Assembly (NCBI GenBank): GCA_947561715.1
Contig: OX387201.1
Coordinates: 2,064,001 to 2,128,000 of the forward strand
Origin: Ascidia mentula
Lineage: Eukaryota > Chordata > Ascidiacea > Phlebobranchia > Ascidiidae
Direction of reading: 5' to 3'
Length of the DNA stretch: 64,000 bases
Shown: in pieces, positions 12,375-43,797 of the stretch
Numbering within the stretch: the first letter of the stretch is position 1
Layout of the letters: every line of letters starts with the position of its first letter
Program-made: the position numbers and the translations under genes
The notes under the pieces: model-generated
Databases searched by the model: none
What the model was told of the DNA's origin: nothing
Seen by the model: only the letters and a program-made list of their open reading frames with translations

Positions 12375-12881
12375 TCAAGATAGAGACAAAAAATAAAAAA
12401 CAATCACAAAAAGAAAGCAAAATTTAAACAGTGGTGGTGCACAAAACTGTAAATGCATTGTCATTTTAAGATCACAAAATTCACCAATCCAGCTTTGACT
12501 TATGGTTTGTCTCAAATGAAAAGTTTGTGTTAATGTACCAATAACCTTGCTTGAATCAAAAACAAGATACTCCTTGATAATACCACTGACTTTTAACACA
12601 ACCAACTCCCCAAATTGTAATAGCGTGCAAACTTCAATTATGACAAAATAATACTTTTGTATGTGTGGCATATAAAAAAATTCGTTATACACATTTTCTG
12701 CCCTTTTAAATTCTTTTGAGCTTTCAAAATCAGAAACAAAAAGTCTGCAGTCCAAGTCAAAATAATAGGATCCCATTTTTGATTTTGTGTCTATGGTCAT
12801 GTTGTTGACCAGGTTGTAAAACTTGCCAAGAAACTCCATTCCCAGCAGTTTCCTGTTTAATTCACAATAAATGACTTGCAC
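12375..12881 (-). pseudogene. C3orf38-like paralogue, last-exon fragment
   Basis: The open frame matches exon 4 of the intact gene at 13944-14411. Compare FLGKFYNLVNNMTID with FIGMFYDLVNNMAID, and VIGTLTQTFHLRQTISQSW with VIGSFEQTFHLKQTTIQSW. The similarity starts about 19 residues into the intact exon. It continues past the family's C-terminus into a hydrophobic tail (about 20 residues, FKFCFLFVIVFYFLSLS) that looks like read-through into flanking DNA. The upstream acceptor-like site is out of phase with a normal exon 3. No exons 1-3 were found between it and the intact gene, so it is most likely a decayed exon left by an old tandem duplication. Confidence 0.65.
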
Positions 12882-17776: not shown

Positions 17777-19248
17777 ATGGATGAACTGTCTTGTCCAAGA
17801 TGTCGTATGACGAAGTACAGGAATCCAGCATTGCAGTTAATGATAAACATTTGCGGTCATCCACTGTGTAGGTCTTGTGTGGATGTTGTGTACGCTCGAG
17901 AATCTGCACCGTGCCCGGAATGTGGCAGGACTCTACGAAAAAGTGGATTTAGAACACAAGTATTTGAAGACACAAGTACGTGTTTAGTTTGCTGCTTGAA
18001 TGCTGTTCTTTCTACGTGTTGAAGAGAATAACTGGCACATGGCATGTCACATTACATGTAAGAGATGTGCAAGAAAAAGGCAACATGTACATAAATTGGG
18101 TGATGCAGTATTTCAACATTGATAGCATGATTTTATAGACAAGAATTCTTTCAACTTATGATGTAGGTGTGGATTTTACATGTAGAAATATAAAGTTGAG
18201 CATAATACGGCAACTGCATACATTGAACATTTTGTATAGCAACTGCATACATTAAACCAAAAAAACTGTTTTACAGGAGTTGATAAAGAAGTTGACATAC
18301 GAAAAAGTGTCCTGAAAACTTACAACAAACTTGAAAATGATTTTGCCACCCTTCGTGAGTATAACGACTACTTGGAAGAGGTTGAAGAGATTATCTGGAA
18401 CTTGGAAAGTGGCATTAATGAGAGAGAGACACGAGAAAAAATGGCCGAGTATAAGTGAGCCATATTTTTTTTAACCCACATCATTTGTTTAGTCTGTTTT
18501 GTCTTTACTGTTTGGCGTAATCAGCAGGAAAAGTAAAAATTCTTACTTAAAACATCAATATGAAAACAGGATTTCCAGCCACGGTTGTTTAATATTCTAC
18601 ATTTACCATATTTGCTTTTGTAATATATCCATCGCTGAATTGTCGGTATTTCAACATCCATGCTTTTCTTCGCTAACTAGAATGGAAAATGAAGCCCAGA
18701 TTCGTCGAAATCAAGTGCGGCTCAATCAAGAACGTGCCTACTTCAAAGACACATTAGCACGCGAAGAGAAAGAGAAGGAGGCACGTGCGATGATGAGGAA
18801 TAAACTTGACCAAGAAGCAGATGAAGCGAGACGGAAAATGGAAGAGGAGTTCTTACAAGAGCTCAAGTCGAACTCACACTTGACGGCCGAGGAACTCTTG
18901 GCGCGTCGGCGAAAATTCGAGTCTGAAAACCTGGCGAAAACGGCCGCCGGTGATCGGATGTCAATTGATTTTGGTGTAAACACGGAGCCTGCAGACAGAA
19001 CCACGGTGGACTCAGGCGCCGAAGCGGCTCCGAGTGAGTATGTGTACAATGAAGAAACGATGGACATCGTAGGCCCCGATATACCGGAAACACGTGACTT
19101 ATGTGAGAACGGTTACTTGCGTCACGTCCGGGAGGCGACGCAGAGGGACATTGGAGGTGGATACAGCAGTCTTATATCTTGCCAGAGGGCGCTGTGCGAC
19201 GCTTTTGGGGGTCTTTTTGCAACTCCTTCATCTACGGCAACTGGTTAG
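17777..19248 (+). CDS. MNAT1: CDK-activating kinase assembly factor MAT1
   Basis: Exons are 17777-17975, 18277-18454 and 18681-19248, giving 314 residues (human 309). The N-terminal C3HC4 RING is clear: [20 protein letters not shown], then CGHPLCRSC and [13 protein letters not shown]. The central coiled-coil region follows (LREYNDFLEEVEEI is the human form; here [14 protein letters not shown]). The C-terminal CDK7/cyclin H-binding part ends [23 protein letters not shown]1 stabilises CDK7-cyclin H and anchors CAK to TFIIH. The gene starts 240 bp after the TTC4 stop on the same strand, close enough for a shared transcript, although I see no strong acceptor just upstream of the ATG. Confidence 0.95.
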
Positions 19249-22019: not shown

Positions 22020-25000
22020 ATCTCCAGTCTGTTACTAGGAGTCGGTCGTGTGATTCACCCGGGGTGGCAAAATCTAGGCCTAACTTAGGCTAACTCGCAT
22101 AGGGTGAGTGACCTGCTCTCCCCCAATTTTCCCCGGGTCTCAAAAAACTGTTCTCCTCCCCCACGAAAGGCCTTCACACAATAATTGGGCGGCGGAGCGG
22201 GTCCAAGTCGCTAGGAGTGCCACCATTCAGTTATTGCCCTAGGTTTACAACTACGATGGCACTCTTTAATTAAGGGTAGCGTAGATAAAGTAGGTTATAT
22301 TTTGGGTTCGCGCGCCTCTAGGGACCTTAGTTTATTTCGATCTCTGTAGCTAAGTGTGGCGCGTTGTTAAATGGCCTTAGTTTTAAATGTAGGTGGCGCT
22401 TAGAACCACTTGGCACGGCCTTCCACCGCATTGCACTGGCCGCGGTGCAGGCTGACCAAGTAGGGACACCCGCTACTCCGACTGCATGAAATGCCATTAA
22501 CGTTGTTGCAACGGCGTCCAGTTTTGGCACGTAGTGTAGAAGGGGCCGGCATAGCATTGCTCCCGAACGGTTGGCGAGCCACCATTTTAGGACGCAATTT
22601 CCATTCGATAAAGTTGTTATTCCACCACCACAGCGTTGTCAATCTTTGCGTTGGGAGGGGGGTCTCGATGGGCAAGGGGCAGTGACTTTGGGTGCTTTTC
22701 AGTTATACGCTTTTAAAAGTCGCTGTCCCTTTTAAAACTTTTATATTGCGCCTATGCTAAACGTAAAAACAGGGAGCGGTGTTTGAGCGTTCGGGTTTTG
22801 GCCAGATCATTTTACCGGAGGCATGTACATGTGGGAAGCGACTTTGCATAAAAGGGTTAAGGGTGTAAAGTACTTGTTAAATTTTAATTATGAAAGTGAT
22901 TCCGCGAATTTTAATGTGTGTACATGTCCTTCTTGATCTGGTCATGCCCTTATTTGTTTTTTGCCCCTCACTAATTTTTAGCTTAACTTAATTTAGTTTT
23001 AATCAATCTTCGATTTTCGGCTTTGTCGCCTTGGGGGAATCACCACTGAACAACTGGGCGGGCGATGTTCTGTAAGAACTCCGTTTGTCCAAGTATTCTG
23101 TGGTTAAAAACACACCGACTCACTTTTTACTTTGTTATTAGGCCTAAGTGACACTAGATCAGTCAGTTCGAGGAAAGATTCTATTACTATTGTTCACTTC
23201 GCGCGCAGGGACGGCGGCGGTTCCACTGATATTTATGTTACAGAAGCCGTTTTCCACCAATCAGAAGACTGGATTTCGTCTCTTAATATTTTCCCGAAAA
23301 TGATGTAAATCTTGTCCACGAACAACCTTTCATAATTTGTCGACAAATAACAACAAGAACATCGTATTTAAAAAACTCTGAATGTAATACGTGATTATTT
23401 AATAATCTGACCACAAGACCGCGCTTTTTATCTTTGAATAATGCATGTGATCGTGTTTACGTGTCTTTGTCGCTTTCCCCTCCAAAACAAATTACTGATA
23501 TATCATTTCTATCCTTTTCACTTCCATGAATATTCAGACCAGTTCTTGGGGGTGTTGTACCTTACTAGATCAGCCGACCAGAGTGAATATTTTATTGTGT
23601 TGCTTCGGTTCTGAAACTGCACGCGTTCGCTAACATTGTGGACCGCCGTCGTCAGTTTTTACGAGACCCTTACAAAAGTATAGTTAGTAAATGCAGGCTG
23701 GCAGGTGTCAGGAGGAGGTTGTTTACGTGTTGGTGTAAAAATGTTGGCTACATGTTGGTGTATTTTTCTTGCATATGTTACCTATTCATTGTAGTTCATT
23801 TATTTTAACGGAATCTTTGTTTTGCAGAAACAAATTCATGCTGATTATTCCATTGTGACGTTACTGACGTTTGATGTTCTCCAACCAATGACGCCCAATC
23901 CGGGCCAGTCTGTTTTCCTCGTTTCGGTCGTGGTTCTGCGCCGAACGAGGGTCTCTCTACTGACTTAGATGAGACCCACCGCGAGGGTTGGTACCTTGAC
24001 GTGGTGCGGTGGCTTTTAAACCAAGTCCAACTCCGCAGAACCAAATTATGAATAAATTCTTCTGGAAGATTGCTTTATGAACTTGAACGTAAACCTACCG
24101 TTAGATGGGGGTGGTGATTCGTACAGATTTTGTTGGGCACAAGTAAGGTTTTGAAGACTTTGGGTGCATGGAGGTTCACAGTCAAAACAGATAAAATGCA
24201 AACGTCACAAACTGAAGGACTAAACACCTCGATTCCTAAACCGTTAAAAGATCTTTTGCAGCCCTAAAACCATCGCCCTTTTAGAAAGCCACAATAGTCG
24301 CCGATGCAAGAATACTTCAGAATTAACGGATTTTTACCGAAACTTACACGTTTGCTGTTCGGCAAAATCGGCAGTACTGACCACTCCCGTATTCCTGTGG
24401 CTGTTCTGTCTCTAGATATACACATAAATTATTAAAAATTATTAAACGTGCCGTATCAGTCTTGAAATGTCTACAAACTTAATTCTCAATTCTCTTGATT
24501 TGGCACTCTTCTAAGCACACTAGCTTTCGCGAGTGCCTCTCGCTTCATCCTGCGATATATAAATCTGTTGACGCCTTTAAGGTGGGAATTTATTTGTGCA
24601 AATCTCACGGCGTTCGGGTTTGGTACAAATTTCGTCAAACGATTTTACCGAAATGCAACTGCAAAGGTACACCAAGTTTGTTTCTTAATCATTCAACATT
24701 GTTCGTGCTTAGCTGTAGGCAGGGCTATTGCTAAGGCATGTGCCTCCACCAAGAAGTATAAAACGTATCGATTTGCAGCAAACATTGTTTTCACAAAAGG
24801 TTCGAATGGGGATTTCACAAAACTTCTGAAATACTGATGACTTGGTGCGTATGGGGAAGTGTGCTTTCTTTATATCGGCCGGATTTTATCAGGTACCTGG
24901 GGGTGGTAATACCTCTCAGAAAGTACAACCAGAGGAGTTTTCTAAATTTTTCCCCCCTAAAATAACAACATGTTATACACCGCGACCCAGGCACAAACCC

Positions 25001-25930: not shown

Positions 25931-28900
25931 AAGTGTCTGAAATGCCGGTTAAAACCGGTTTGGAGGTTCGAGAGGCTGCTGAAACCGGCCCCAACCGGAT
26001 TTAAACTGGAATATTCCGCCGATTTCCGCCCACAAGTGGACATTTTTGTAATGGACGAAATCCGGAAAAACCGAAAGGGGTTAGCCTTGGTGTTTTTTCG
26101 AAAATCGAACGAAAGTTTAATGTCTCGAATTCCGGTTTAAACCGGTTTGGAGGTTCGAGAGGCTGCTGAAACCGGCCCCAACCGGTTTTGAACTGGAATA
26201 TTCCGGCGATTTCCGCCCACAAGTGGACATTTTTGTATCGGACGAAATCCGGAAAAACGGAAAGGGTAGCCTTGGTGTTTTTTCGAAAATCGAACGAAAG
26301 TTTAATGTCTCGAATTCCGGTTTAAACCGGTTTGGAGGTTCGAGAGGCTGCTGAAACCGGCCCCAACCGGTTTTAAACTGGAATATTTCGGCGATTTCCG
26401 CCCACAAGTGGACATTTTTGTATCGGACGAAATCCGGAAAAACGGAAAGGGGTTAGCCTTGGTGTTTTTTCGAAAATCGAACGAAAGTTTAATGTCTCGA
26501 ATTCCGGTTTAAACCGGTTTGGAGGTTCGAGAGGCTGCTGAAACCGGCCCCAACCGGTTTTAAACTGGAATATTCCGGCGATTTCCGCCCACAAGTGGAC
26601 ATTTTTGTATCGGACGAAATCCGGAAAAACGGAAAGGGGTTAGCCTTGGTGTTTTTTCGAAAATTGAACGAAAGTTTAATGTCACGAATTCCGGTTTGAA
26701 CCGGTTTGGAGGTTCGAGAGGCTGCTGAAACCGGCCCCAACCGGTTTTAAACTGGAATATTCCGGCGATTTCCACCCACAAGTGGACATTTTTGTATCGG
26801 ACGAAATCCGGAAAAACGGAAAGGGGTTAGCCTTGGTGTTTTTTCGAAAATCGGACGAAAGTTTAATGTCTCGAATTCCGGTTTAAACCGGTTTGGAGGT
26901 TCGAGAGGCTGCTGAAACCGGCCCCAACCGGTTTTAAACTGGAATATTCCGGCGATTTCCGCCCACAAGTGGACATTTTTGTATCGGACGAAATCCGGAA
27001 AAACGGAAAGGGGTTAGCCTTGGTGTTTTTTCGAAAATCGAACGAAAGTTTAATGTCACGAATTCCGGTTTAAACCGGTTTGGAGGTTCGAGAGGCTGCT
27101 GAAACCGGCCCCAACCGGTTTTAAACTGGAATATTCCGGCGATTTCCGCCCACAAGTGGACATTTTTGTATCGGACGAAATCCGGAAAAACGGAAAGGGT
27201 AGCCTTGGTGTTTTTTCGAAAATCGAACGAAAGTTTAATGTCTCGAATTTCGGTTTAAACCGGTTTGGAGGTTCGAGAGGCTGCTGAAACCGGCCCCAAC
27301 CGGTTTTAAACTGGAATATTCCGGCGATTTCCGCCCACAAGTGGACATTTTTGTATCGGACGAAATCCGGAAAAACGGAAAGGGTAGCCTTGGTGTTTTT
27401 TCGAAAATCGAACGAAAGTTTAATGTCACGAATTCCGGTTTAAACCGGTTTGGAGGTTCGAGAGGCTGCTGAAACCGGCCCCAACCGATTTTGAACTGGA
27501 ATATTCAGGCGATTTCCGCCCACAAGTGGGCATTTTTGTATCAGACGAAATCCGGAAAAACGGAAAGGGGTTAGCCTTGGTGTTTTTTCGAAAATCGAAC
27601 GAAAGTTTAATGTCACGAATTCCGGTTTAAACCGGTTTGGAGGTTCGAGAGGCTGCTGAAACCGGCCCCAACCGGTTTTAAACTGGAATATTCCGGCGAT
27701 TTCCGCCCACAAGTGGACATTTTTGTATCGGACGAAATCCGGAAAAACCGAAAGGGGTTAGCCTTGGTGTTTTTTCGAAAATCGAACGAAAGTTTAATGT
27801 CTCGAATTCCGGTTTAAACCGGTTTGGAGGTTCGAGAGGCTGCTGAAACCGGCACCAACCGGTTTTGAACTGGAATATTCCGGCGATTTCCGCCCACAAG
27901 TGGGCATTTTTGTATCGTACGAAATCCGGAAAAACGGAAAGGGGTTAGCCTTGGTGTTTTTTCGAAAATCGAACGAAAGTTTAATGTCTCGAATTCCGGT
28001 TTAAACCGGTTTGGAGGTTCGAGAGGCTGCTGAAACCGGCCCCAACCGGTTTTAAACTGGAATATTCCGGCGATTTCCACCCACAAGTGGACATTTTTGT
28101 ATCGGACGAAATCCGGAAAAACGGAAAGGGGTTAGCCTTGGTGTTTTTTCGAAAATCGAACGAAAGTTTAATGTCACGAATTCCGGTTTAAACCGGTTTG
28201 GAGGTTCGAGAGGCTGCTGAAACCGGCCCCAACCGGTTTTAAACTGGAATATTCCGGCGATTTCCGCCCACAAGTGGACATTTTTGTATCGGACGAAATC
28301 CGGAAAAACGGAAAGGGGTTAGCCTTGGTGTTTTTTCGAAAATCGAACGAAAGTTTAATGTCTCGAATTCCGGTTTAAACCGGTTTGGAGGTTCGAGAGG
28401 CTGCTGAAACCGGCCCCAACCGGTTTTGAACTGGAATATTCCGGCGATTTCCGCCCACAAGTGGACATTTTTGTATCGGACGAAATCCGGAAAAACGGAA
28501 AGGGTAGCCTTGGTGTTTTTTCGAAAATCGAACGAAAGTTTAATGTCTCGAATTCCGGTTTAAACCGGTTTGGAGGTTCGAGAGGCTGCTGAAACCGGCC
28601 CCAACCGGTTTTAAACTGGAATATTTCGGCGATTTCCGCCCACAAGTGGACATTTTTGTATCGGACGAAATCCGGAAAAACGGAAAGGGGTTAGCCTTGG
28701 TGTTTTTTCGAAAATCGAACGAAAGTTTAATGTCTCGAATTCCGGTTTAAACCGGTTTGGAGGTTCGAGAGGCTGCTGAAACCGGCCCCAACCGGTTTTA
28801 AACTGGAATATTCCGGCGATTTCCGCCCACAAGTGGACATTTTTGTATCGGACGAAATCCGGAAAAACGGAAAGGGGTTAGCCTTGGTGTTTTTTCGAAA

Positions 28901-31900
28901 ATTGAACGAAAGTTTAATGTCACGAATTCCGGTTTGAACCGGTTTGGAGGTTCGAGAGGCTGCTGAAACCGGCCCCAACCGGTTTTAAACTGGAATATTC
29001 CGGCGATTTCCACCCACAAGTGGACATTTTTGTATCGGACGAAATCCGGAAAAACGGAAAGGGGTTAGCCTTGGTGTTTTTTCGAAAATCGGACGAAAGT
29101 TTAATGTCTCGAATTCCGGTTTAAACCGGTTTGGAGGTTCGAGAGGCTGCTGAAACCGGCCCCAACCGGTTTTAAACTGGAATATTCCGGCGATTTCCGC
29201 CCACAAGTGGACATTTTTGTATCGGACGAAATCCGGAAAAACGGAAAGGGGTTAGCCTTGGTGTTTTTTCGAAAATCGAACGAAAGTTTAATGTCACGAA
29301 TTCCGGTTTAAACCGGTTTGGAGGTTCGAGAGGCTGCTGAAACCGGCCCCAACCGGTTTTAAACTGGAATATTCCGGCGATTTCCGCCCACAAGTGGACA
29401 TTTTTGTATCGGACGAAATCCGGAAAAACGGAAAGGGTAGCCTTGGTGTTTTTTCGAAAATCGAACGAAAGTTTAATGTCTCGAATTCCGGTTTAAACCG
29501 GTTTGGAGGTTCGAGAGGCTGCTGAAACCGGCCCCAACCGGTTTTAAACTGGAATATTCCGGCGATTTCCGCCCACAAGTGGACATTTTTGTATCGGACG
29601 AAATCCGGAAAAACGGAAAGGGTAGCCTTGGTGTTTTTTCGAAAATCGAACGAAAGTTTAATGTCACGAATTCCGGTTTAAACCGGTTTGGAGGTTCGAG
29701 AGGCTGCTGAAACCGGCCCCAACCGGTTTTGAACTGGAATATTCCGGCGATTTCCGCCCACAAGTGGACATTTTTGTATCGGACGAAATCCGGAAAAACG
29801 GAAAGGGTAGCCTTGGTGTTTTTTCGAAAATCGAACGAAAGTTTAATGTCTCGAATTCCGGTTTAAACCGGTTTGGAGGTTCGAGAGGCTGCTGAAACCG
29901 GCCCCAACCGGTTTTAAACTGGAATATTCCGGCGATTTCCGCCCACAAGTGGACATTTTTGTATCGGACGAAATCCGGAAAAACGGAAAGGGTAGCCTTG
30001 GTGTTTTTTCGAAAATCGAACGAAAGTTTAATGTCTCGAATTCCGGTTTAAACCGGTTTGGAGGTTCGAGAGGCTGCTGAAACCGGCCCCAACCGGTTTT
30101 GAACTGGAATATTCCGGCGATTTCCGCCCACAAGTGGACATTTTTGTATCGGACGAAATCCGGAAAAACGGAAAGGGGTTAGCCTTGGTGTTTTTTCGAA
30201 AATCGAACGAAAGTTTAATGTCTCGAATTCCGGTTTAAACCGGTTTGGAGGTTCGAGAGGCTGCTGAAACCGGCCCCAACCGGTTTTAAACTGGAATATT
30301 CCGGCGATTTCCGCCCACAAGTGGGCATTTTTGTATCGGACGAAATCCGGAAAAACGGAAAGGGGTTAGCCTTGGTGTTTTTTCGAAAATCGGACGAAAG
30401 TTTAATGTCTCGAATTCCGGTTTAAACCGGTTTGGAGGTTCGAGAGGCTGCTGAAACCGGCCCCAACCGGTTTTAAACTGGAATATTCCGGCGATTTCCG
30501 CCCACAAGTGGACATTTTTGTATCGGACGAAATCCGGAAAAACGGAAAGGGGTTACGAAATCCGGAAAAACCGAAAGGGGTTAGCCTTGGTGTTTTTTCG
30601 AAAATCGAACGAAAGTTTAATGTCTCGAATTCCGGTTTAAACCGGTTTGGAGGTTCGACAGGCTGCTGAAACCGGCCCCAACCGGTTTTGAACTGGAATA
30701 TTCAGGCGATTTCCGCCCACAAGTGGGCATTTTTGTATCGGACGAAATCCGGAAAAACGGAAAGGGGTTAGCCTTGGTGTTTTTTCGAAAATCGAACGAA
30801 AGTTTAATGTCACGAATTCCGGTTTAAACCGGTTTGGAGGTTCGAGAGGCTGCTGAAACCGGCCCCAACCGGTTTTAAACTGGAATATTCCGCCGATTTC
30901 CGCCCACAAGTGGACATTTTTGTATTGGACGAAATCCGGAAAAACGGAAAGGGGTTAGCCTTGGTGTTTTTTCGAAAATCGAACGAAAGTTTAATGTCTC
31001 GAATTCCGGTTTAAACCGGTTTGGAGGTTCGAGAGGCTGCTGAAACCGGCCCCAACCGGTTTTGAACTGGAATATTCCGGCGATTTCCGCCCACAAGTGG
31101 ACATTTTTGTATCGGACGAAATCCGGAAAAACGGAAAGGGGTTAGCCTTGGTGTTTTTTCGAAAATCGAACGAAAGTTTAATGTCTCGAATTCCGGTTTA
31201 AACCGGTTTGGAGGTTCGAGAGGCTGCTGAAACCGGCCCCAACCGGTTTTGAACTGGAATATTCCGGCGATTTCCGCCCACAAGTGGACATTTTTGTATC
31301 GGACGAAATCCGGAAAAACGGAAAGGGTAGCCTTGGTGTTTTTTCGAAAATCGAACGAAAGTTTAATGTCTCGAATTCCGGTTTAAACCGGTTTGGAGGT
31401 TCGAGAGGCTGCTGAAACCGGCCCCAACCGGTTTTAAACTGGAATATTTCGGCGATTTCCGCCCACAAGTGGACATTTTTGTATCGGACGAAATCCGGAA
31501 AAACGGAAAGGGGTTAGCCTTGGTGTTTTTTCGAAAATCGAACGAAAGTTTAATGTCTCGAATTCCGGTTTAAACCGGTTTGGAGGTTCGAGAGGCTGCT
31601 GAAACCGGCCCCAACCGGTTTTAAACTGGAATATTCCGGCGATTTCCGCCCACAAGTGGACATTTTTGTATCGGACGAAATCCGGAAAAACGTTGGTGTT
31701 TTTTCGAAAATTGAACGAAAGTTTAATGTCACGAATTCCGGTTTGAACCGGTTTGGAGGTTCGAGAGGCTGCTGAAACCGGCCCCAACCGGTTTTAAACT
31801 GGAATATTCCGGCGATTTCCACCCACAAGTGGACATTTTTGTATCGGACGAAATCCGGAAAAACGGAAAGGGGTTAGCCTTGGTGTTTTTTCGAAAATCG

Positions 31901-34900
31901 GACGAAAGTTTAATGTCTCGAATTCCGGTTTAAACCGGTTTGGAGGTTCGAGAGGCTGCTGAAACCGGCCCCAACCGGTTTTAAACTGGAATATTCCGGC
32001 GATTTCCGCCCACAAGTGGACATTTTTGTATCGGACGAAATCCGGAAAAACGGAAAGGGGTTAGCCTTGGTGTTTTTTCGAAAATCGAACGAAAGTTTAA
32101 TGTCACGAATTCCGGTTTAAACCGGTTTGGAGGTTCGAGAGGCTGCTGAAACCGGCCCCAACCGGTTTTAAACTGGAATATTCCGGCGATTTCCGCCCAC
32201 AAGTGGACATTTTTGTATCGGACGAAATCCGGAAAAACGGAAAGGGTAGCCTTGGTGTTTTTTCGAAAATCGAACGAAAGTTTAATGTCTCGAATTCCGG
32301 TTTAAACCGGTTTGGAGGTTCGAGAGGCTGCTGAAACCGGCCCCAACCGGTTTTAAACTGGAATATTCCGGCGATTTCCGCCCACAAGTGGACATTTTTG
32401 TATCGGACGAAATCCGGAAAAACGGAAAGGGTAGCCTTGGTGTTTTTTCGAAAATCGAACGAAAGTTTAATGTCACGAATTCCGGTTTAAACCGGTTTGG
32501 AGGTTCGAGAGGCTGCTGAAACCGGCCCCAACCGATTTTGAACTGGAATATTCAGGCGATTTCCGCCCACAAGTGGGCATTTTTGTATCAGACGAAATCC
32601 GGAAAAACGGAAAGGGGTTAGCCTTGGTGTTTTTTCGAAAATCGAACGAAAGTTTAATGTCACGAATTCCGGTTTAAACCGGTTTGGAGGTTCGAGAGGC
32701 TGCTGAAACCGGCCCCAACCGGTTTTAAACTGGAATATTCCGGCGATTTCCGCCCACAAGTGGACATTTTTGTATCGGACGAAATCCGGAAAAACCGAAA
32801 GGGGTTAGCCTTGGTGTTTTTTCGAAAACCGAACGAAAGTTTAATGTCTCGAATTCCGGTTTAAACCGGTTTGGAGGTTCGAGAGGCTGCTGAAACCGGC
32901 ACCAACCGGTTTTGAACTGGAATATTCCGGCGATTTCCGCCCACAAGTGGGCATTTTTGTATCGTACGAAATCCGGAAAAACGGAAAGGGGTTAGCCTTG
33001 GTGTTTTTTCGAAAATCGAACGAAAGTTTAATGTCTCGAATTCCGGTTTAAACCGGTTTGGAGGTTCGAGAGGCTGCTGAAACCGGCCCCAACCGGTTTT
33101 AAACTGGAATATTCCGGCGATTTCCACCCACAAGTGGACATTTTTGTATCGGACGAAATCCGGAAAAACGGAAAGGGGTTAGCCTTGGTGTTTTTTCGAA
33201 AATCGAACGAAAGTTTAATGTCACGAATTCCGGTTTAAACCGGTTTGGAGGTTCGAGAGGCTGCTGAAACCGGCCCCAACCGGTTTTAAACTGGAATATT
33301 CCGGCGATTTCCGCCCACAAGTGGACATTTTTGTATCGGACGAAATCCGGAAAAACGGAAAGGGGTTAGCCTTGGTGTTTTTTCGAAAATCGAACGAAAG
33401 TTTAATGTCTCGAATTCCGGTTTAAACCGGTTTGGAGGTTCGAGAGGCTGCTGAAACCGGCCCCAACCGGTTTTAAACTGGAATATTCCGGCGATTTCCG
33501 CCCACAAGTGGACATTTTTGTATCGGACGAAATCCGGAAAAACGGAAAGGGTAGCCTTGGTGTTTTTTCGAAAATCGAACGAAAGTTTAATGTCACGAAT
33601 TCCGGTTTAAACCGGTTTGGAGGTTCGAGAGGCTGCTGAAACCGGCCCCAACCGGTTTTAAACTGGAATATTCCGGCGATTTCCGCCCACAAGTGGACAT
33701 TTTTGTATCGGACGAAATCCGGAAAAACGGAAAGGGGTTACGAAATCCGGAAAAACCGAAAGGGGTTAGCCTTGGTGTTTTTTCGAAAATCGAACGAAAG
33801 TTTAATGTCTCGAATTCCGGTTTAAACCGGTTTGGAGGTTCGACAGGCTGCTGAAACCGGCCCCAACCGGTTTTGAACTGGAATATTCAGGCGATTTCCG
33901 CCCACAAGTGGGCATTTTTGTATCGGACGAAATCCGGAAAAACGGAAAGGGGTTAGCCTTGGTGTTTTTTCGAAAATCGAACGAAAGTTTAATGTCACGA
34001 ATTCCAGTTTAAACCGGTTTGGAGGTTCGAGAGGCTGCTGAAACCGGCCCCAACCGGTTTTAAACTGGAATATTCCGCCGATTTCCGCCCACAAGTGGAC
34101 ATTTTTGTATTGGACGAAATCCGGAAAAACGGAAAGGGGTTAGCCTTGGTGTTTTTTCGAAAATCGAACGAAAGTTTAATGTCTCGAATTCCGGTTTAAA
34201 CCGGTTTGGAGGTTCGAGAGGCTGCTGAAACCGGCCCCAACCGGTTTTGAACTGGAATATTCCGGCGATTTCCGCCCACAAGTGGACATTTTTGTATCGG
34301 ACGAAATCCGGAAAAACGGAAAGGGGTTAGCCTTGGTGTTTTTTCGAAAATCGAACGAAAGTTTAATGTCTCGAATTCCGGTTTAAACCGGTTTGGAGGT
34401 TCGAGAGGCTGCTGAAACCGGCCCCAACCGGTTTTAAACTGGAATATTCCGGCGATTTCCGCCCACAAGTGGGCATTTTTGTATCGGACGAAATCCGGAA
34501 AAACGGAAAGGGGTTAGCCTTGGTGTTTTTTCGAAAATCGAACGAAAGTTTAATGTCTCGAATTCCGGTTTAAACCGGTTTGGAGGTTCGAGAGGCTGCT
34601 GAAACCGGCCCCAACCGGATTTAAACTGGAATATTCCGCCGATTTCCGCCCACAAGTGGACATTTTTGTATTGGACGAAATCCGGAAAAACGGAAAGGGG
34701 TTACGAAATCCGGAAAAACCGAAAGGGGTTAGCCTTGGTGTTTTTTCGAAAATCGAACGAAAGTTTAATGTCTCGAATTCCGGTTTAAACCGGTTTGGAG
34801 GTTCGAGAGGCTGCTGAAACCGGCACCAACCGGTTTTGAACTGGAATATTCCGGCGATTTCCGCCCACAAGTGGACATTTTTGTATCGGACGAAATCCGG

Positions 34901-34963
34901 AAAAACGGAAAGGAGCCTTGGTGTTTTTTCGAAAATCGACCGAAGATTTAATGTCTCTAATTC
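25931..34963. repeat. Tandem satellite array, 187/185-bp monomer, about 48 copies
   Basis: A monomer of 187 bp, or 185 bp where GGAAAGGGTAGCC replaces GGAAAGGGGTTAGCC, repeats head to tail for about 9 kb. Each unit contains the palindrome CCGGTTTAAACCGG, then GGAGGTTCGAGAGGCTGCTG, CCCCAACCGGTTTTAAACTG and GGAATATTCCGGCG, and ends in CGAAAATCGAACGAAAG and AATGTCTCGAATT. Copies are nearly identical, with few variant positions. Variant units recur at fixed offsets, showing higher-order duplication. Three units (near 30540, 33736 and 34696) carry the same 28-bp internal duplication and are 215 bp long; one near 31690 lacks 14 bp. Both array edges are degenerate. Minus-strand open frames of 73-96 codons occur in every unit, but the period is not a multiple of three and they look incidental. 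Confidence 0.97.
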
Positions 34964-35369
34964 ATAAAATCATAAATTAAAGTATTCTTCTGTATTCTAT
35001 TTTTGAGCGACATCCCCTTGAACATTTTTTGCTTTTTGAGGTAACTTTTTTACAGCACCCAGCACCAAATGACTATACCTGATTAAGAAGGGCAAAAAAA
35101 ATGCACTAAAACTGCACTTAACATGCTTAAAATCGCCCCGGCAATAACATGGGCCTTCCCACTCATTCAACCATTAATTTGACCTCAATGGCGTAACTGA
35201 GTTTCCCTGTTACAGAGGATTACAAGGAGGGCATTCACCTCGGGTGAAACTTTTTTAATAGAAACACTGATATGCGGTCTTAAAAAAAACTAACATTGTT
35301 GAAGATAAAACAACTTTAAAAAGCGTTGCTGTTCGCCTGCCCTTTTGAAACGCAGACAGAGAAATAACA
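34964..35369. other. Spacer between satellite and RPUSD4 stop; no gene seen
   Basis: About 400 bp of AT-rich sequence contains the RPUSD4 3' UTR (minus strand). No canonical AATAAA was found close to the stop codon. Confidence 0.4.
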
Positions 35370-38300
35370 TCAATAAAACTTCTTGTATTTCACGTTGACC
35401 TGCGGACGAAAAACGAAAACGCAATCTTTTTCGCCATCTTCCCCCGACTCTCGTCTTTCTTCCGTACTTTCCACTGTCGGGTCGTGATAAAGGGGATTTC
35501 TGAAGTCCGCGGGAGGGGCTTCAAGGTCAGGGGGCGGAAGACGTTTAACATTCCACGGGGACGGAACGCCGGCTCGCAGACCGAAAAGTTTCATCGATCG
35601 TTCGAAGTGGGCGGGGACCCGCGATCCAACCACTAGGTGGCGCTTCCGTTGATCTTTAAACACGTCTGGAAAGAACGGAAATATTAAAAAAAAAATTTAT
35701 AAATTCACGAAAAGTTTTACAACTTTCTACAATTAAAACTTGGTTTGCCAAACAGGTGAATAAAAGGTCAAACATGCATTCCATTACATTCCACGGAACA
35801 CACGCTTACATGAGTAGAATTTAAAAACGATAGATTTTAATATATGTACTGGGACTATTACATTGAACGTGTCACCATCAGCATTGCGGCTGCTACCAAT
35901 CACAAGAAAACAAAATGAAGCCTTGTACAATGTTTGGGATATAGACGCTTAAACACAAGACGTGTGCTTTCATACCAGTTACACATTTGCTTTGCTGACC
36001 ATCTTTAATAACAAACTGTTTCAGGCGCCACTTTCGAAACAACATTTTTGTTGAACGATTGGTTCTGGTTATTTTACTTACAACACAACACAACGAGGGC
36101 AACGCATATTATACAGCAAAACTCCAAAAATGCAAATTTCACATGGGACAAAACCAAAGCATGAAGATACAATAAGATACAATGATTTTACAACAGCTTA
36201 AAAATAAACCTCACCAGGAATTAGGATCTGACTTTGGTGGAGGTGCATGGGTATGTGGCGGGTTTTGGTCGACGGCAGTTGAAGTCTTTTGAGCATTAGA
36301 GGGGAAAGTTTTTGTGGCGCCAGTGAGCCCAGTTCTGAGTACTTGTGGTCGCCAAGAATTGGGCAGCCCAAGCCATCAGCTGCATGGACTCTGATTTGAT
36401 GTTTGGCAGCTAAAAAATCAACATAAAATGTGAACTCTTACATTGTTGGCAATTATCACATCAAATTTTTCAAAATCACATAAGTCAGTTGTAGGATAAG
36501 TTTGCGTTGAAATAAAATCACTTTCCATGGCAACTACAAAACATAAATGACCACAAACACCCAAAAAACAATTATTTCAACACATAAATTGGGTAATAAT
36601 GATCCTAACAAATATTTTTTGACAAATATCAACAGTATCTATTTTTTTAGTCAAAGATTAATCACAGTGGAAATCAACCAATATACACACATTCTACTTC
36701 AACGTACTTGTTTCAGGTTCAAACTCAACCAAGGACACTTCTCCCTGATAATCGATCACTCTGTACTTTGTGATTGCTCTTTGGCCCCGCTGTATACTCT
36801 GAGGTGTTTCCTCACCCGTCATAGGGTCGTACCTTAATATGTGGCAAAGAACGTGAAACAATTGGGAATTACAAAATAATCAGCAGCTGAGTAAAATTTT
36901 GGCTAATTTTATTCAAATGAGAACAATTTACATAAAAAAAAATATTTGATGCCAAATATTGCAATGGTTTATTTAGTTACTACTTTTGTCAGGTCTGACA
37001 TGTTGTTGCATTAGCTGTGACATTTTTGAAAGGGAATTTCACCTTATCCAAAAAAATGCTACTAAAAAGGACTTGTTGTGGTTTCACAAACTTTAGGGGG
37101 CACAAAAGGTCCCGGTATAGCAACAAACTTATATACTTATAGCATTGTTTTGTCTAGAATGAAGTGGTTTCTGCCAGGACATGGTTCTTACCTGACGTTT
37201 GGTTTGGCAACCATTCGTGAAAATTTCTTCGAAGAGTTGCGGTCGGTAAAATGACCTTCTCCAATCGGAATGTCAATTATGCCCTCTTGTGGTTGTGGAA
37301 CACCAATGACAATTGCCCTAATTAAATTTGTATTCAGTTCCTGTTTAATATGATTCCAAAAATAGGTTTACGACAAGAAATACTTTAATAGAAGTACAAA
37401 AAAGTAATCAAAATCAAAGCAAAAGTAAATATAACCAACATACAAACTACTAAAACTGGCACAAATGTAAAAAAAACACTGTTTTCCGTTAAAAAAGTTA
37501 TACTTTCTTGAAAGAATGTTTGCAAAAAAATAACCTTCGACGTACCAAACTTTCTTGCAAATCAAGTGCATCCGAAACATCTTCTTAATGTGCTTTTCAA
37601 GTTCTGGATCTGCGCAACACACTATCACCCCGGTTGTGTTCTTGTCAAGTCGGTTGCAGAGTGCGAGAGGAATATTTGTACTGATCCCGTGCACCATCCT
37701 AGACACCATTGGAAGGACTCTTTTGATGTTTTTCTTCAGCCCATCTCCATCTAAACACAAACATTTTTGTTACAGTCAGAGATTACATATATATACATAA
37801 TACTGTGAAGCAAAATCAAACACATGTGAAAATTACATGTTTAGTCTTTACATTGACTGCATGTATGGTTGTAACCACTTGGTGAAAAAAATATGTTCGG
37901 CAAAAATAATATATGCAAATTTTAAGATAAAACCGCCAGTTGTATTTCACAAAAACATGTCAATTAATGTGAAAAAAATTGGTATTTAATAAAAAGGAGT
38001 CCATTATTACGATAACATTTAAAACAATAGGTATCAGAGCAAAACATTGTGGATGTATTGTACACAAAGCCTGTTGCACCTCCACCGCACCTGTATGAAC
38101 TGGTAAAAAGTGGAAGGATACAAAACCCACATAAGGCTTTTGTGCGACAGGATGCAATTTCCCAAAATAAGGCACCAGAATAACCTTACCATAGCAGCTT
38201 ACTGGAAGCTGCTCATCCTTCCTAATGTACTTATTTAACTTCAGACATAAAAAATGCCACGTCTACGTCTGTGAAAAGTAATGACAGCATGTACTTGGCC

Positions 38301-39436
38301 AGTACTAAGGGGGATGAGGAGGCAACTGTTTGGTTGGGTGAAGGGAATAAGTGCTGGTCATGTTTTGTAAAAGATTGCAAATTAAACCACTAAATCTTGG
38401 AATGACACAACAAACACCACTGACCACTGAGTATATGTAAATGATAGTAAATTTTTAGGAACATGTGTGCCTTGCAAATTGTACTGACCAAACTAAATAC
38501 TTGGTATAATTATATATACATTATATGTTTCCCATCAATAAATCCTGATTTTTTAATGACTTGCAGTGCATAATTATTCACCATATAAAATCAACATACA
38601 TCTATATTTCAACATACTTATTATCTTTGTAATATAATCACAAATGTTTTACCACGGCTTACCATGAATTGGCAGTCCATAGGGTTTGTTGAAAATAACC
38701 ATATTTTTGTCAGCGTAGACAACCCTGCGTCGAATATGCTTCGCTATTAACTCATCTTCTTCATATGTGTAATCTGGTACTTGGAAAGCTCGAATTGCTC
38801 TTTTTACTGGATCAAGTTCTGCCACTGCACTCTGCAATACAGGGCATTTAATACATATGCATGCTGAGTGTTTTAGTTTGGTCACTAATCAAAGGGATAT
38901 CATGTCTACTCCTTCAAGACAAGTTTTTCCAATAACATAATAATAAGCATTGCACACAAATTCATGTCACAAACCATGGCAAAGCTGGAAGCCTTAAAAA
39001 ATTTAATCATCACCTTATTCTTTCTCTTTTGTCGAAGTTGTTTCGCAATATCCATGCCAGTCACTAAGGAGCGCTCATTTCTGGCCACGCTATGGTCAGA
39101 TTTTTCAATTTTAAACTTGTCTTGGTCTTTGGAAATTGTTTTAACAACGTCTTGGGGTCGCCTGTTAGGTGGTTCTGCTGCAGAGTCAATGTCTTTTATC
39201 ATTTCGTCCCACGTTGGTGCACTTGGTTTTGTCGTGGCATGAGCACGAGTGCGCAAAGTTCGCTGCACAAACTTTGTAATGGGGTAAGGGATCTTTTCCT
39301 GGGTCTCAGTGTGTCTAAGTGCCTTGGAAGTTACTTGGTTCCTTTTGCAGGCAAAGTAACAAATTGCATTTTCTGTTGTGCAAGAGGATCTTGCTAAGGC
39401 AGAGACCCCACGAAATATTATGCTACTCTTTAGCAT
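35370..39436 (-). CDS. RPUSD4: Mitochondrial RNA pseudouridine synthase (RPUSD4, RluA family)
   Basis: Seven exons on the minus strand: 39014-39436, 38663-38831, 37546-37750, 37192-37317, 36708-36832, 36215-36409 and 35370-35665. They give 512 residues with consistent phases (human 377). The N-terminus (MLKSSIIFRGVSALARS) is basic and Ser-rich like a mitochondrial presequence. The RluA catalytic core is present: VVYADKNMVIFNKPYGLPIH, the catalytic aspartate in CNRLDKNTTGVIV, KKVWAIVIGVPQPQ, and the C-terminal TAKHQIRVHAADGLGCPILG with DHKYS. The usual HRLD reads NRLD here. RPUSD4 modifies 16S mt-rRNA and mt-tRNA in mitochondrial RNA granules. The extra length is in the N-terminal leader and a charged C-terminal tail. 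A splice acceptor (TTTTTTGTAG) abuts the ATG exactly, which suggests trans-splicing or an upstream non-coding exon. Confidence 0.92.
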
Positions 39437-39702: not shown

Positions 39703-40155
39703 TTACTCGTCCACTGTAATGCTATCATTAACAGAAGTGTCATTGTCTTCAACATTTTTCATTTCAACATCATCGCCGTCAGTTTTGTTCGGTGAGACAT
39801 TGTTTGGGGAGTTGGCGTTTGCCTCTTTCGCTTTTTTCCGTTTTTCAGAGGCCACCTTTTTGCCCTTTTGTTCTTTTTTAAAGTTTTCCACCTGGTCTTT
39901 GAGTATGGGAATAAAACTCTCAAACTCCATATCTTCGAGGGCTGCAAATACGTCAACATCCTTGAGAGTTTTACGTTTTTGCTGCATGGCGAAGTTGTTG
40001 GCGCAGGAGGTGCAGTACAGGACAAAAACACTGGCAGCTTTTGAGATGGCCGCCCTTGATTCTTTGGACATAATTACGCCTTCAGGCAGTGCCTCTTTGA
40101 TGATTCTAGTTATCACGGAAGTGGGCAGGTTCAAATCTTCAGGTTTTTCTGCCAT
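39703..40155 (-). CDS. POLE3: DNA polymerase epsilon subunit 3 / CHRAC histone-fold protein
   Basis: This 150-residue protein closely follows human POLE3 (147 aa): [60 protein letters not shown], then a Lys-rich segment ([20 protein letters not shown]) and an acidic tail. The histone fold pairs with POLE4 in polymerase epsilon and with CHRAC1 in the CHRAC/ISWI remodeller; both act in the nucleus. The ATG at 40155 gives the conserved MAE(K/R)PEDLNLP start; the frame stays open 19 codons upstream, but those residues are not conserved. An acceptor-like CTTTAG ends at 40202, so the 5' UTR may begin at 40201. No introns interrupt the coding region. Confidence 0.95.
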
Positions 40156-40201
40156 TTCACTATTTAAACTATTTTCTGCAGAAATGTTGATTAGAACTTT
40201 C

Positions 40202-40215
40202 CTAAAGAACATGAT
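40202..40215 (-). promoter_or_regulatory. Putative trans-splice acceptor upstream of POLE3
   Basis: On the minus strand GTTCTTTAG ends at 40202, 46 nt before the POLE3 ATG. It is about 75 nt downstream of the likely calumenin cleavage site, which is spacing expected of an operon. No donor for an ordinary intron is evident in the short upstream gap. Confidence 0.4.
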
Positions 40216-40290
40216 GATGTATGAATATATTTATTACAAATATGTGGAAATGTGTATGTGATAATAAATACAACAAACGTGAAACCATGG

Positions 40291-40687: not shown

Positions 40688-41617
40688 TTAAAACTCGTCA
40701 TGCCTATTCAAAGCTTCACCCCAGTCGGTGGCTTGGGATCCAACGAACTTGTCGTGGTGATTAATAATCTCTTCTTTGGTGAGGACTCCATCTTTATCAT
40801 CGTCAGATTCATAAATAAGGTGCTTAGCTTCAGCCTCAGAGTGGTTGTAGTCTTCAGGCATGATCCACTGTTTCACCTCCTCCAGGTTAAGCTTGCCATC
40901 TTTGTCAGTATCTCTGAATTCGGCAAACTGCTGTCTCTCGGTTCCCACCCATTCTGGTTCTTCTCCATCGGCTGGGTTGAACATATCACCAATGTACTCT
41001 TGGAGGTCAACAAACCCATTCTTGTCTTTGTCGATGTCTTCCAGAGTTTCCTGGACAACGATGTCCCTCATGTGTTCGAACTCTTCAGGATGAAGAAAGG
41101 TGCGGAATTCTTCAACAGTGCATGCTTTGTCGCCGTCAGTGTCTGCTTTATTCCACCGCCTTTCATCCCTGTCCATCATCTGCTGGTAACTAAAACCATC
41201 AGCTTGTTCGGGAGCATCTTCCTCACTCAAAAATCCATAGGTGGCTTTTTTGTATTCGTCCCAATGAATTTTTCCATCTTTGTCAGCGTCGTGTGTGCCG
41301 AATTGTTTATCTGCATCTTCACGGATGTAGCGCTGTTGCGTAAAGACAATCCACTTCTGAAGTTCTTCTTCTGTGACTTTGCCATCCTTGTCCGCATCAA
41401 TTTTGTCGGCAATCACTCCAAGTCGTCTTTTGCTTTCCTCCGGTGACAACTCTTTAAATTTCTCCGCCTCCTCGACACCCAAAAAGGCTTCATTGTCATA
41501 TTCAGGTGAGCCTGGTGTTTTGTCGCTCAACTTATGGTCAAGGACACGATCCTTCTTGGCAACAGCTGCCATGGCAACCGAAGCAAAGAGACCTAATAGG
41601 GTCAGTTTCAAAATCAT
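40688..41617 (-). CDS. CALU: Calumenin (CREC family EF-hand protein), copy A, intronless
   Basis: This 309-residue protein starts with a signal peptide ([20 protein letters not shown]) and ends HDEF, the ER-retention signal of calumenin. Six EF-hand loops are visible: [36 protein letters not shown] (no Gly at position 6), [24 protein letters not shown] and [12 protein letters not shown]. Family signatures include [29 protein letters not shown] and [17 protein letters not shown] proteins are low-affinity calcium binders of the secretory pathway that act with chaperones and gamma-carboxylation. The human genes have several introns, whereas this one has none. It is a tandem paralogue of 42177-43106. 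Confidence 0.95.
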
Positions 41618-42176
41618 TCTATTTTAGTTTATGAACCAAAATACTCCTAAAATAAACTGATAAAAACAAAAAATAACGATGAATATTGGTTGGGAGAGTT
41701 GCACTAAACACTAAAACTATTACAAACTAATGGCAAAGCACTTGGCTACAATATAGCAGTGGACAAAAAGTTGCTTCATAACTAAAAAAAATTGCAATTA
41801 TCAACCCAATTTAAAGTTTGCTTCTGTAAAAGTTTAGTGGGTACAAAAAAACTGTGTATATGTCAGGTAGCAGGTTTGGTGTAGTTTGGTGAATAATACA
41901 GTGGAGCACCATAGGTCTCTATTGAATAAAATGTAAACATGATTTTTTTTTGGCATTAGAGCTAGCATTATGTAACAGTAGAACAGAACACTCGATAAAC
42001 ACAATATGCCAAAAAATGATTGCAAAAGACATTGAAGCTTACAGAGCACATATATGTTTTGTTCGAGCATACTAATACTGGAAGACCAATTGACAAAATT
42101 TGGGCTGATAAACTATTTTGACTTGCAGCGCTTTAGGACATTTTGTGCTCCACATTGCAACATCAGACAGAATTTT

Positions 42177-43106
42177 CTAAAATTCATCATGTCTAGCTAG
42201 TGCTTCCCCAAAGTCAGTGGCTTGGGAACCAACAAAAGTCTCATGGTGTGCCAAGATTTCGTCTTTATCTAATTCACCATCTTTATTTTCATCGGCTTCT
42301 GCGATCAGATGCTTCGCTTCAACATGAGCGTGATCCACGTGCGTCTCGGGTAAAATCCATAGTTTCACTTCCTTGAGGTCCAGCTTTCCATCTCCATTCA
42401 AGTCCCGTAATTCTTTGAAGTGCTTTTTTTCGGTTGCAACCCACTCAGGCTCCTCCCCTCCCTCTTCTGCATTGTACATGTCCCCTATGTACTCATTCAA
42501 GTCAATGTTGCCATCGTTGTCCTTGTCGATGTCCTCCAGTGTCTCCTGGACCACGATATCACCCATGTGCACAAATTCTTCAGGGTGAATGTAAAACGCA
42601 AATTCAGTCCTTGTCAGAGAATTGTCGCCGTTATCATCAGCAGCAGCCCAGCGACGTTGATCTCGTTCAATTAAATGCTTGTACTGATTATTACTGCCGT
42701 CCTCTGAATCTTCATCTTTAAGAAATCCATAACTCACAGTTTTATACTCATCCCACTCAATTAAGTCGTCTTTATTTTTATCGTATGTATTAAATTGTCT
42801 GTCAGAATCCTCTTTGGTGTATCGGTCATGGGTAAAAGTGATCCAGTCCTCCAGCTCCTCCTGAGTAATTTTGCTGTTTTTGTCTTTATCAATGTTGTCA
42901 GCAATGATCCCCAGTCTTCTTCTGCTTTCCTCAGGATCCAGATTTTTAAACTCCTCTGCCTTGTCTGAACCAAGAAATGCCTCATGGTCATAATCCGGAG
43001 ATCCTTTAGGCTCGTCGCTGAGTGCTTGGTCAATGACACGATCATCTGGCTGATTGGCACACACCAAACCGACCAACAAAATTACCACAATCAACTTTAA
43101 GGTCAT
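42177..43106 (-). CDS. CALU: Calumenin/reticulocalbin (CREC family EF-hand protein), copy B, intronless
   Basis: This 309-residue protein has a signal peptide (MTLKLIVVILLVGLVCANQ) and ends in HDEF. Six EF-hand positions are recognisable; the first two lack Gly at position 6 (DKDKNSKITQEE, DKNKDDLIEWDE) and the third is DDNGDNSLTRTE, so calcium affinity may differ from copy A. The later loops DKDNDGNIDLNE, DLNGDGKLDLKE and DENKDGELDKDE look functional. The ATG at 43106 gives the signal peptide; the frame stays open upstream without another ATG. A donor on the minus strand at 43798/43797 (GTGAAG/GTGAGC) may end a non-coding first exon. It lies about 560 bp upstream of copy A on the same strand, a tandem duplicate with clearly diverged sequence. 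Confidence 0.94.
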   Translation of the reverse strand: MTLKLIVVILLVGLVCANQPDDRVIDQALSDEPKGSPDYDHEAFLGSDKAEEFKNLDPEESRRRLGIIADNIDKDKNSKITQEELEDWITFTHDRYTKEDSDRQFNTYDKNKDDLIEWDEYKTVSYGFLKDEDSEDGSNNQYKHLIERDQRRWAAADDNGDNSLTRTEFAFYIHPEEFVHMGDIVVQETLEDIDKDNDGNIDLNEYIGDMYNAEEGGEEPEWVATEKKHFKELRDLNGDGKLDLKEVKLWILPETHVDHAHVEAKHLIAEADENKDGELDKDEILAHHETFVGSQATDFGEALARHDEF

Positions 43107-43797
43107 TTTGAAAATTATCAAACTAACCCTTCACAGAGGGTGCAAATAAACTTAGTAAACATTGTCAACACCAGAAGTTGCATGCCAAATCAAATCCAAA
43201 TGTTGCACAAGCCAATATAGGCAGTCTTTAAAACAGTAGTCCATTATACCCACATATTGTATGAATACCAGGGATATTTTGGGAACAAAACTAGACTCAA
43301 ATCCACAGAATTAATCGGTTTTGACATGAAAGTTATTATAGCCTATAAGTATAGGCTGTTCCAATGCATGCAAAATTTTACAGATTCCAGATTGGAAAGT
43401 TTATAATTTGTTTCTGCAGATGTTAATTGTGCAAACAATGCACAGATTAATGAAAGTTTTTTGCATGTTAATGCCTTATGGTTTTGATGGTAAAAGTATG
43501 TATTCTGGAACTGTGACATTTTTCCAATCAGGTACAAGACATGTCTCATTATTATTGGTTGTTATTGTATCCCATTTACTCAAAATCTTTCCCACACGAT
43601 CAAAATGACCATTTCATTTGTGTTGCAGAAGAATGTGACTTTTTCAAAACCACTGATTTTGCACAACAACCTCTTTAACTTAGTCACTATTTTTATGCTC
43701 TGAACCCTGACAAGACTAATAATAACCACTAACCAACTTTAACTATTTGCACATCGACATACAGTAGGTACTGTACAATATACCAACAAAAGCTCAC

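What the first reader, a model, noticed from the sequence alone, without database searches (positions are those of the whole stretch)
25931..34963. Nine-kilobase satellite with nucleosome-sized monomer and higher-order repeat structure
About 48 near-identical 187/185-bp units sit in a gene-bearing region. Diagnostic variant units recur at offsets of 2238 bp (unit ending 26407 to 28645), 2823 bp (28645 to 31468), 5047 bp (27440, 27678 and 27814 to 32487, 32725 and 32861) and 3185 bp (30637, 30875 and 31011 to 33822, 34060 and 34196). This shows block duplications of 12 to 27 units on top of monomer spread. 187 bp is close to a nucleosome repeat length, so the array could phase chromatin or be centromere-related.
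Basis: partly seen in the sequence, partly recalled or inferred. Interest (0 to 1): 0.75.

Follow-up and report, generated by a model that had tools for sequence, protein, structure and literature searches.

The report
Sea squirt subterminal 187-bp satellite array
A 9-kilobase run of 48 near-identical 187-base repeats in a sea squirt chromosome is real and grew by copying blocks of its own units, but it belongs to a small satellite family that clusters on a few chromosomes and gives no sign of being a centromere.

Summary
The array is real: 25931-34963, 48 units, mostly 187 bp (185, 173 and 215 also occur), about 98% alike. The four offsets are exact. The copied blocks are 4 to 13 units long; 12, 15, 17 and 27 units are the distances between copies. 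Runs of matching units far exceed shuffled orders. There is no regular higher-order period.

The genome matches the ascidian Ascidia mentula; the window is on chromosome 5. The family has about 900 near-exact units (about 0.09% of the genome). Of 788 exact core hits, 31 are on chromosomes 3, 5 and 6 and the rest on chromosomes 8, 9 or later small contigs. Arrays are homogeneous inside (96-99.7%) and 84-94% like each other. A block near the ends of chromosomes 3, 8 and 9 carries short remnants.

Best reading: an ordinary gene-region, subterminal satellite that expands by unequal exchange and is homogenised array by array. A centromere role is not supported. Each unit carries about two copies of the Grainyhead-like site AACCGGTT (92 in the array, 1.2 expected); whether it is bound is open.

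The parts
25931..34963 (+). Satellite array, 48 head-to-tail units, mostly 187 bp; the only array with exact core hits on chromosome 5
   Evidence: TRF; anchors; unit table; exact 42-mer and 22-mer hits on C69 all lie here
26115..28537 (+). Block of units 1-13, copied as units 28-40; units 1-7 are also copied as units 13-19
   Evidence: at distance 27, 13 of 13 unit pairs differ by at most one event
31176..33584 (+). Second copy of that block (units 28-40), with private changes such as a 14-bp deletion in unit 30 and one base in unit 36
30400..31175 (+). Block of units 24-27, copied as units 41-44 (33585-34360); includes a 215-bp unit with a 28-bp internal duplication
   Evidence: 4 of 4 pairs differ by at most one event at distance 17
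34964..35284 (+). Repeat element, 75% identical to part of a 1,885-bp tandem repeat on contig C74; the similarity starts exactly at the array's right edge
18493..19248 (+). MAT1 (CDK-activating kinase assembly factor) exon; nearest gene recognised to the left, pointing toward the array
   Evidence: Pfam PF25811 E 1.4e-19 and PF06391 E 1e-07
36198..39436 (-). Probable RNA pseudouridine synthase gene; nearest gene recognised to the right, pointing toward the array
   Evidence: PF00849 in ORF 37368-37769, E 1.8e-05, 25.5 bits against a cut-off of 26.8; ORFs 36198-36437 and 38649-38888 and 38906-39436 match no family and are joined to it by eye (ORF list)

Best explanation
This is one locus of a low-copy satellite DNA family of an ascidian (matching Ascidia mentula), in the gap between two genes that point toward it on chromosome 5. 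Shown: the array grew by duplication of units and of blocks of 4-13 units; units inside each array are homogenised (about 98% here) while arrays at different loci have diverged (84-94%); short remnants of the family lie in a block shared by the ends of chromosomes 3, 8 and 9. Inferred: the copying is by unequal crossing-over or replication slippage; exchange between chromosome ends, perhaps with reinsertion elsewhere, spread short seeds, some of which amplified in subterminal regions. The array most likely does nothing for the neighbouring genes or for chromosome segregation.
For: Block copies at four distances, far above shuffled orders. Within-array identity 0.957-0.997 and between-consensus identity 0.84-0.94 for 11 arrays, three of them read only in part. 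Edge units differ more from their array's consensus than interior ones (3.3 against 2.3 events; 19 and 212 units; Mann-Whitney p = 0.0075), as expected if edges exchange less. Other places of the family: chr8 at 0.57, 1.26, 1.66, 2.22 and 2.63 Mb, chr9 at 10.80, 12.23, 12.83, 13.25 and 14.38 Mb, a small one on chr6 at 18.95 Mb. A block shared by the starts of chr2, 3 and 8 and the end of chr9, with satellite remnants on chr3, 8 and 9. On chr8 at 1.26 Mb a segment with its array is itself duplicated: 1,557 bp after the two arrays are 99.9% identical.
Against: The shared end block was not found in the window or beside 11 other family loci, so how the family reached 2.09 Mb on chromosome 5 is not shown. 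The edge effect is modest. Columns invariant between arrays are clustered beyond chance (0 of 5000 permutations), which could reflect constraint. Only 178 of 788 exact 22-mer hits lie in sequence that I read, so the map of chr8, chr9 and small contigs is incomplete.
Confidence: 0.8

Rival explanations
1. Centromeric or pericentromeric satellite: the array marks a centromere or its flank, and its nucleosome-sized unit organises that chromatin.
For: Nucleosome-sized unit; block duplications; weak 10-bp A/T rhythm (9 of 1000 shuffles); the places found on chr8 lie at 0.57-2.63 Mb of 19.7 and those on chr9 at 10.8-15.4 of 15.4 Mb, i.e. clustered.
Against: No exact 22-mer hit listed on chr1, 2, 4 and 7, one on chr3, two on chr6. 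Pieces seen run from 0.14 kb to at least 18.8 kb. A recognised gene exon lies 2.4 kb (by eye 1.2 kb) from the right edge and 6.7 kb from the left. The best CENP-B-like box, 7 of 9 fixed positions, is reached by 158 of 500 shuffles (box pattern recalled).
Confidence: 0.05
2. Binding platform for Grainyhead/CP2-type factors: each unit carries about two AACCGGTT palindromes; the arrays gather these factors as a sink or boundary and are kept for it.
For: 92 perfect AACCGGTT in the array against 1.2 expected from its dinucleotides, 2 in the remaining 55 kb. One site is invariant in 11 of 11 array consensuses. AACCGGTT is the GRHL consensus, and a human chr7 region of 22-bp repeats dense in such sites shows GRHL2 signal (passages of preprint PMC13105062). 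That CP2 factors bind a like site is recalled; passages of PMC6213935 did not give a sequence.
Against: Counted by columns, the sites are not significantly less polymorphic within arrays than other columns (5.7% against 8.4%, p = 0.25), nor than other columns invariant between arrays (6.5%, p = 0.87). The second site is intact in 8 of 11 consensuses. Copying a founder unit 48 times multiplies any motif in it. No binding data.
Confidence: 0.08
3. Internal tandem repeat of a transposon: the arrays were carried to each place inside a mobile element.
For: Flanks of the chr8 1.26 and 2.63 Mb arrays share about 720 bp (77%), and the chr9 12.83 Mb flank shares part of it; pieces resemble a dispersed element on many chromosomes. 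The window array's right edge coincides with the start of a repeat. Five of eight arrays end at unit positions 146-155.
Against: That flank was shared by 3 of 8 loci compared, not by the window. The dispersed copies listed on chr1-7 have no exact 22-mer hit beside them. Several array edges run into decayed units with different flanks. The window's two 3-kb flanks share no repeat at E 0.1.
Confidence: 0.06
4. Assembly artefact: the block duplications or the array's length come from misassembly.
For: The raw reads could not be examined.
Against: The matching assembly is from 74-fold HiFi reads with QV 64.9 (PMC11109543). Copied blocks carry private differences (units 7, 30, 36, 43). The same unit occurs at many other loci.
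Confidence: 0.03

Closest known systems
Euchromatic arrays of the Drosophila 1.688 satellite family (PMC7642928; abstract start and passages seen)
   Same: Short arrays among genes of a unit of about 190 or 360 bp, diverged from each other, uneven over chromosomes, some telomeric or subtelomeric signals
   Different: No sequence relation was tested. The fly arrays are enriched on the X and have heterochromatic counterparts; here no sex chromosome is listed in the genome note and no large block of this family was seen
Human alpha satellite with higher-order repeats (recalled)
   Same: Nucleosome-sized unit; exchange of multi-unit blocks
   Different: No regular multimer period, not on every chromosome, kilobases long, no CENP-B-like box above chance
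Human subtelomeric duplicons (PMC2323237, search listing only)
   Same: A block shared between ends of non-homologous chromosomes (here chr2, 3, 8, 9)
   Different: Here copies of the block carry fragments of a satellite that also forms arrays megabases inward

Membership tests
Satellite DNA | Long head-to-tail array of one unit | tested here: met
   48 units
Satellite DNA | Concerted evolution: units more alike within than between arrays | tested here: met
   0.957-0.997 within, 0.84-0.94 between consensuses, 11 arrays
Satellite DNA | Not protein-coding | tested here: met
   No stop-to-stop ORF of 140 aa or more lies in the array; 187 and 185 are not multiples of 3; no Rfam family in the window
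Higher-order repeat satellite | A multi-unit block repeated at a constant period | tested here: not met
   Mean difference dips at distances 12, 15, 17 and 27 only, in nested irregular blocks (distances 1-39)
Centromeric satellite | Large blocks on all or most chromosomes | tested here: not met
   Exact 22-mer: none listed on chr1, 2, 4, 7; 1 on chr3; 2 on chr6; about 900 near-exact units in all. Satellite-based centromeres that differ between chromosomes are not excluded
Centromeric satellite | Bound by the centromeric histone | not testable with these tools
   No chromatin data
Subterminal/subtelomeric repeat family | Copies near several chromosome ends within shared blocks | tested here: met
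   Remnants in a block near the ends of chr3, 8 and 9; the window array itself lies 2.09 Mb from an end and shows no such block
Grainyhead/CP2 binding-site array | Excess of the consensus site, under constraint | tested here: inconclusive
   Large excess; constraint not significant when columns are counted

The most novel reading that the evidence does not exclude
The family is a natural high-density landing strip for Grainyhead/CP2 transcription factors: about two AACCGGTT palindromes per nucleosome-length unit, one of them kept through divergence of all 11 arrays compared, so that the window array presents some 90 regularly spaced sites beside genes and acts as a sink or chromatin boundary.
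Probability: 0.07. Interest if true: 0.6.

Novelty: new member of a known kind. Interest (0 to 1): 0.3.

Why it matters
My text searches showed no satellite study of this species and no tunicate satellitome paper, so it adds a family with its loci, units and history. The chromosome-end block carrying remnants of 0.75 to 1.75 units offers a way to test how satellite seeds move between chromosomes and why some amplify. If the AACCGGTT reading held, it would join satellite DNA to a defined transcription-factor family.

Tried and rejected

Centromere box: best CENP-B-core match 7 of 9 fixed positions; 158 of 500 shuffles do as well or better.

Constraint on AACCGGTT: counting cells gave p = 0.0007, but cells are copies of each other; counting columns gave p = 0.25, so I do not claim it. 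Columns invariant between arrays are less polymorphic within arrays (6.5% against 11.6%, p = 0.0002), but shared old variants could cause this without constraint.

Transposon carrier: examined, not supported in general. Structural-RNA nature of contigs C74 and C75: no Rfam hit in 3 kb of each.

The genome DNA search skips very common words and missed the largest arrays: a query from the chr9 10.8-Mb array did not return its own locus, and one from the chr8 1.66-Mb array likewise. Counts therefore rest on pattern searches, whose lists are cut at 100 places.

Full report
WHAT IS THERE. TRF places the array at 25934-34963, with rows at period 187 and, higher scoring, 374; it starts at 25931 if the first divergent unit is counted from the unit's own start. 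Anchors give 48 units; the 47 spacings are 187 (31), 185 (12), 215 (3) and 173 (1). The 185-bp units lack two bases; the 215-bp units carry a 28-bp internal tandem duplication. Mean pairwise substitution identity is 0.983; GC is 0.465.

BLOCK DUPLICATIONS. Comparing interior units: units 1-13 match units 28-40 (13 of 13 pairs with at most one difference), 1-7 match 13-19 (7 of 7), 13-19 match 28-34 (7 of 7) and 24-27 match 41-44 (4 of 4). Exact runs of >=2, >=3 and >=4 units: 6, 4 and 2; means over 5000 shuffles of unit order 0.8, 0.02 and 0.0006; shuffles reaching the observed counts 1, 0 and 0. The blocks are nested and irregular: repeated copying of blocks, not a higher-order repeat with a fixed period.

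WHICH ORGANISM. The window is C69:2064001-2128000 of a 195.8-Mb genome in 79 contigs. Its COX1 scores 826.7 bits against the best solved structure when read with the ascidian code (table 13) and 793.9 with table 5. Nine large contigs (27.92, 19.88, 23.17, 22.72, 22.34, 21.17, 19.87, 19.66, 15.45 Mb) and a mitochondrion of 19,461 bp match Ascidia mentula kaAscMent1.1: 9 chromosomes, mitochondrion 19.46 kb (PMC11109543, part 1 of 3 of the text read). The published totals, 197.0 Mb in 95 scaffolds, are slightly larger than the copy held here, and a few contigs here are some kilobases shorter. C69 is then chromosome 5, C72 chromosome 8, C73 chromosome 9, C52 chromosome 3, C70 chromosome 6, C2 chromosome 2.

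HOW COMMON AND WHERE. A 42-base core with up to 3 mismatches occurs 901 times (721 +, 180 -; control 0); times 187 bp this is about 168 kb, 0.09% of the genome. An exact 22-base core, invariant in 11 of 11 array consensuses, occurs 788 times (611 +, 177 -). Its list, cut at 100 and by its look ordered by contig, shows one hit on chromosome 3, 28 on chromosome 5 (all in this array), two on chromosome 6, none on contigs C1, C2, C67 and C71 (chromosomes 1, 2, 4, 7), and then chromosome 8. The other 757 are on chromosome 8 or on contigs after it (chromosome 9 and small ones). Of the 788, 178 are in sequence that I read. Arrays seen: chromosome 8 at 0.57, 1.26 (two), 1.66, 2.22 and 2.63 Mb; chromosome 9 at 10.80, 12.23, 12.83, 13.25 and 14.38 Mb; a small one on chromosome 6 at 18.95 Mb. 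A last pattern, typical of two chromosome 9 arrays, hit only those two (44 hits).

HOMOGENISATION. In 11 arrays (5 to 47 units each, three read in part) mean identity within is 0.957-0.997 and between consensuses 0.84-0.94. The window's consensus is 0.85-0.88 to the ten others: no close sibling. A tree of the 11 consensuses does not separate chromosome 8 from chromosome 9 arrays, and several nodes are weak. Units at array edges differ more from their array's consensus (3.3 against 2.3 events; 19 edge, 212 interior; p = 0.0075). On chromosome 8 at 1.26 Mb a segment with its array is duplicated (1,557 bp 99.9% identical).

CHROMOSOME ENDS. A search with 863 bp next to a fragment near the chromosome 9 end (40 of 316 candidates scored) shows two parts. 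From about base 443 the query is a dispersed repeat. Its first 413 bases match only near the starts of chromosomes 2, 3 and 8, besides chromosome 9 itself. The chromosome 3 and 8 copies carry about 1.75 units of the satellite (chromosome 8 also a further decayed piece), chromosome 9 about 0.75 unit; the chromosome 2 stretch that I read (6001-9500) shows none at E 1e-4. Aligned pieces of the block are 82-97% alike outside the satellite and the remnants are about 78-84% like the array consensuses. The remnants lie 8.0-8.4 kb from the start of the chromosome 3 contig, 8.5-9.1 kb from that of chromosome 8, and about 3 kb from the end of the chromosome 9 contig held here, or about 8 kb if chromosome 9 is 15,452,589 bp long as I infer from the paper's N90. 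So pieces of the family are shared between ends of different chromosomes. This does not show that they founded the window array: the block was found neither in the window nor beside 11 other family loci.

NEIGHBOURS. The array lies between a MAT1 exon at 18493-19248 (+) and a probable pseudouridine synthase gene at about 36198-39436 (-): PF00849 just under its cut-off in ORF 37368-37769; the outer ORFs match no family and are joined by eye. Of the ORFs between MAT1 and the array, six were tested and matched nothing. The right edge coincides with the start of similarity to a 1,885-bp repeat of contig C74.

WHAT THE UNIT CARRIES. Columns invariant between arrays (121 of 187) are clustered (0 of 5000 permutations). 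The runs of 10 or more are TGCTGAAACCGGC, AAACGGAAAGGGGTTAGCCTTGG and AACCGGTTTG. AACCGGTT occurs 92 times in the array (1.2 expected) and twice in the rest of the window. It equals the GRHL consensus (passages of the preprint PMC13105062). Against selection on it: constraint is not significant when columns are counted (p = 0.25), and the second site is lost in 3 of 11 consensuses. CpG observed/expected is 1.58 in the array, 0.95 and 0.68 in the 10-kb flanks, 0.96 in the rest of the window, which suggests that germline methylation has not eroded it (inference). A 10-bp A/T rhythm is reached by 9 of 1000 single-base shuffles, a lenient control.

HOW IT WORKS, AND HOW SURE. Shown: tandem growth in blocks, local homogenisation, divergence between loci, remnants shared between chromosome ends. 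Inferred: unequal crossing-over or slippage as the engine, chromosome-end exchange as one route of spread, no function. Against a centromere: few chromosomes, kilobase arrays, genes close by, no CENP-B-like box. Against an artefact: deep HiFi assembly, private differences between block copies, many other loci.

NOVELTY. The kind (short gene-region satellite arrays, diverged between loci) is known, for example from Drosophila 1.688 (PMC7642928, abstract start and passages). Searches: 'Ascidia mentula' + satellite, 2 papers, neither on satellite DNA by its listing; tunicate + satellitome, 0; Ciona + satellite DNA + centromer, 11 papers, 10 listed, none on tunicate satellites by listing; satellite + AACCGGTT, 0. 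A broader search listed an Oikopleura dioica assembly paper (PMC8008620) that mentions tandem repeats and centromeres; I did not read it. The main text of PMC4053949, on centromere tandem repeats of many species, names no tunicate. The library lacks most subscription papers.

Noticed in passing
L035 (C74:1-3000): Contig C74 (60 kb) begins with a 1,885-bp tandem repeat (bases 1-1115 and 1886-3000 identical); no Rfam match; 337 bp of it resemble window 34964-35284.
   Followed up: partly
window 12375-14414: Two ORFs in tandem on the - strand that look alike by eye; one matches PF15008 (DUF4518, E 1.2e-10), the other no family.
   Followed up: no
window 40688-43130: Two neighbouring long EF-hand ORFs on the - strand, calumenin/reticulocalbin-like by recall, next to a histone-fold ORF at 39703-40230 (POLE3-like by recall).
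   Followed up: no
window 23881-24065: 185 bp, 1.9 kb left of the array, 85% like a stretch 0.5 kb before the chromosome 9 end remnant (L091:3701-3876, same orientation); copy number not tested.
   Followed up: no
window 6697-8037: Short pieces 73-99% like sequences near the ends of chromosomes 4, 5 and 6 (L056, L050, L051) and beside two arrays (L011, L015); probably a dispersed small element.
   Followed up: no
L009:900-1625 (C72:1256399-1257124): Part of a dispersed element whose first about 131 bp recur as inverted pairs 1-3 kb apart on several chromosomes, like a DNA transposon with long inverted ends.
   Followed up: partly
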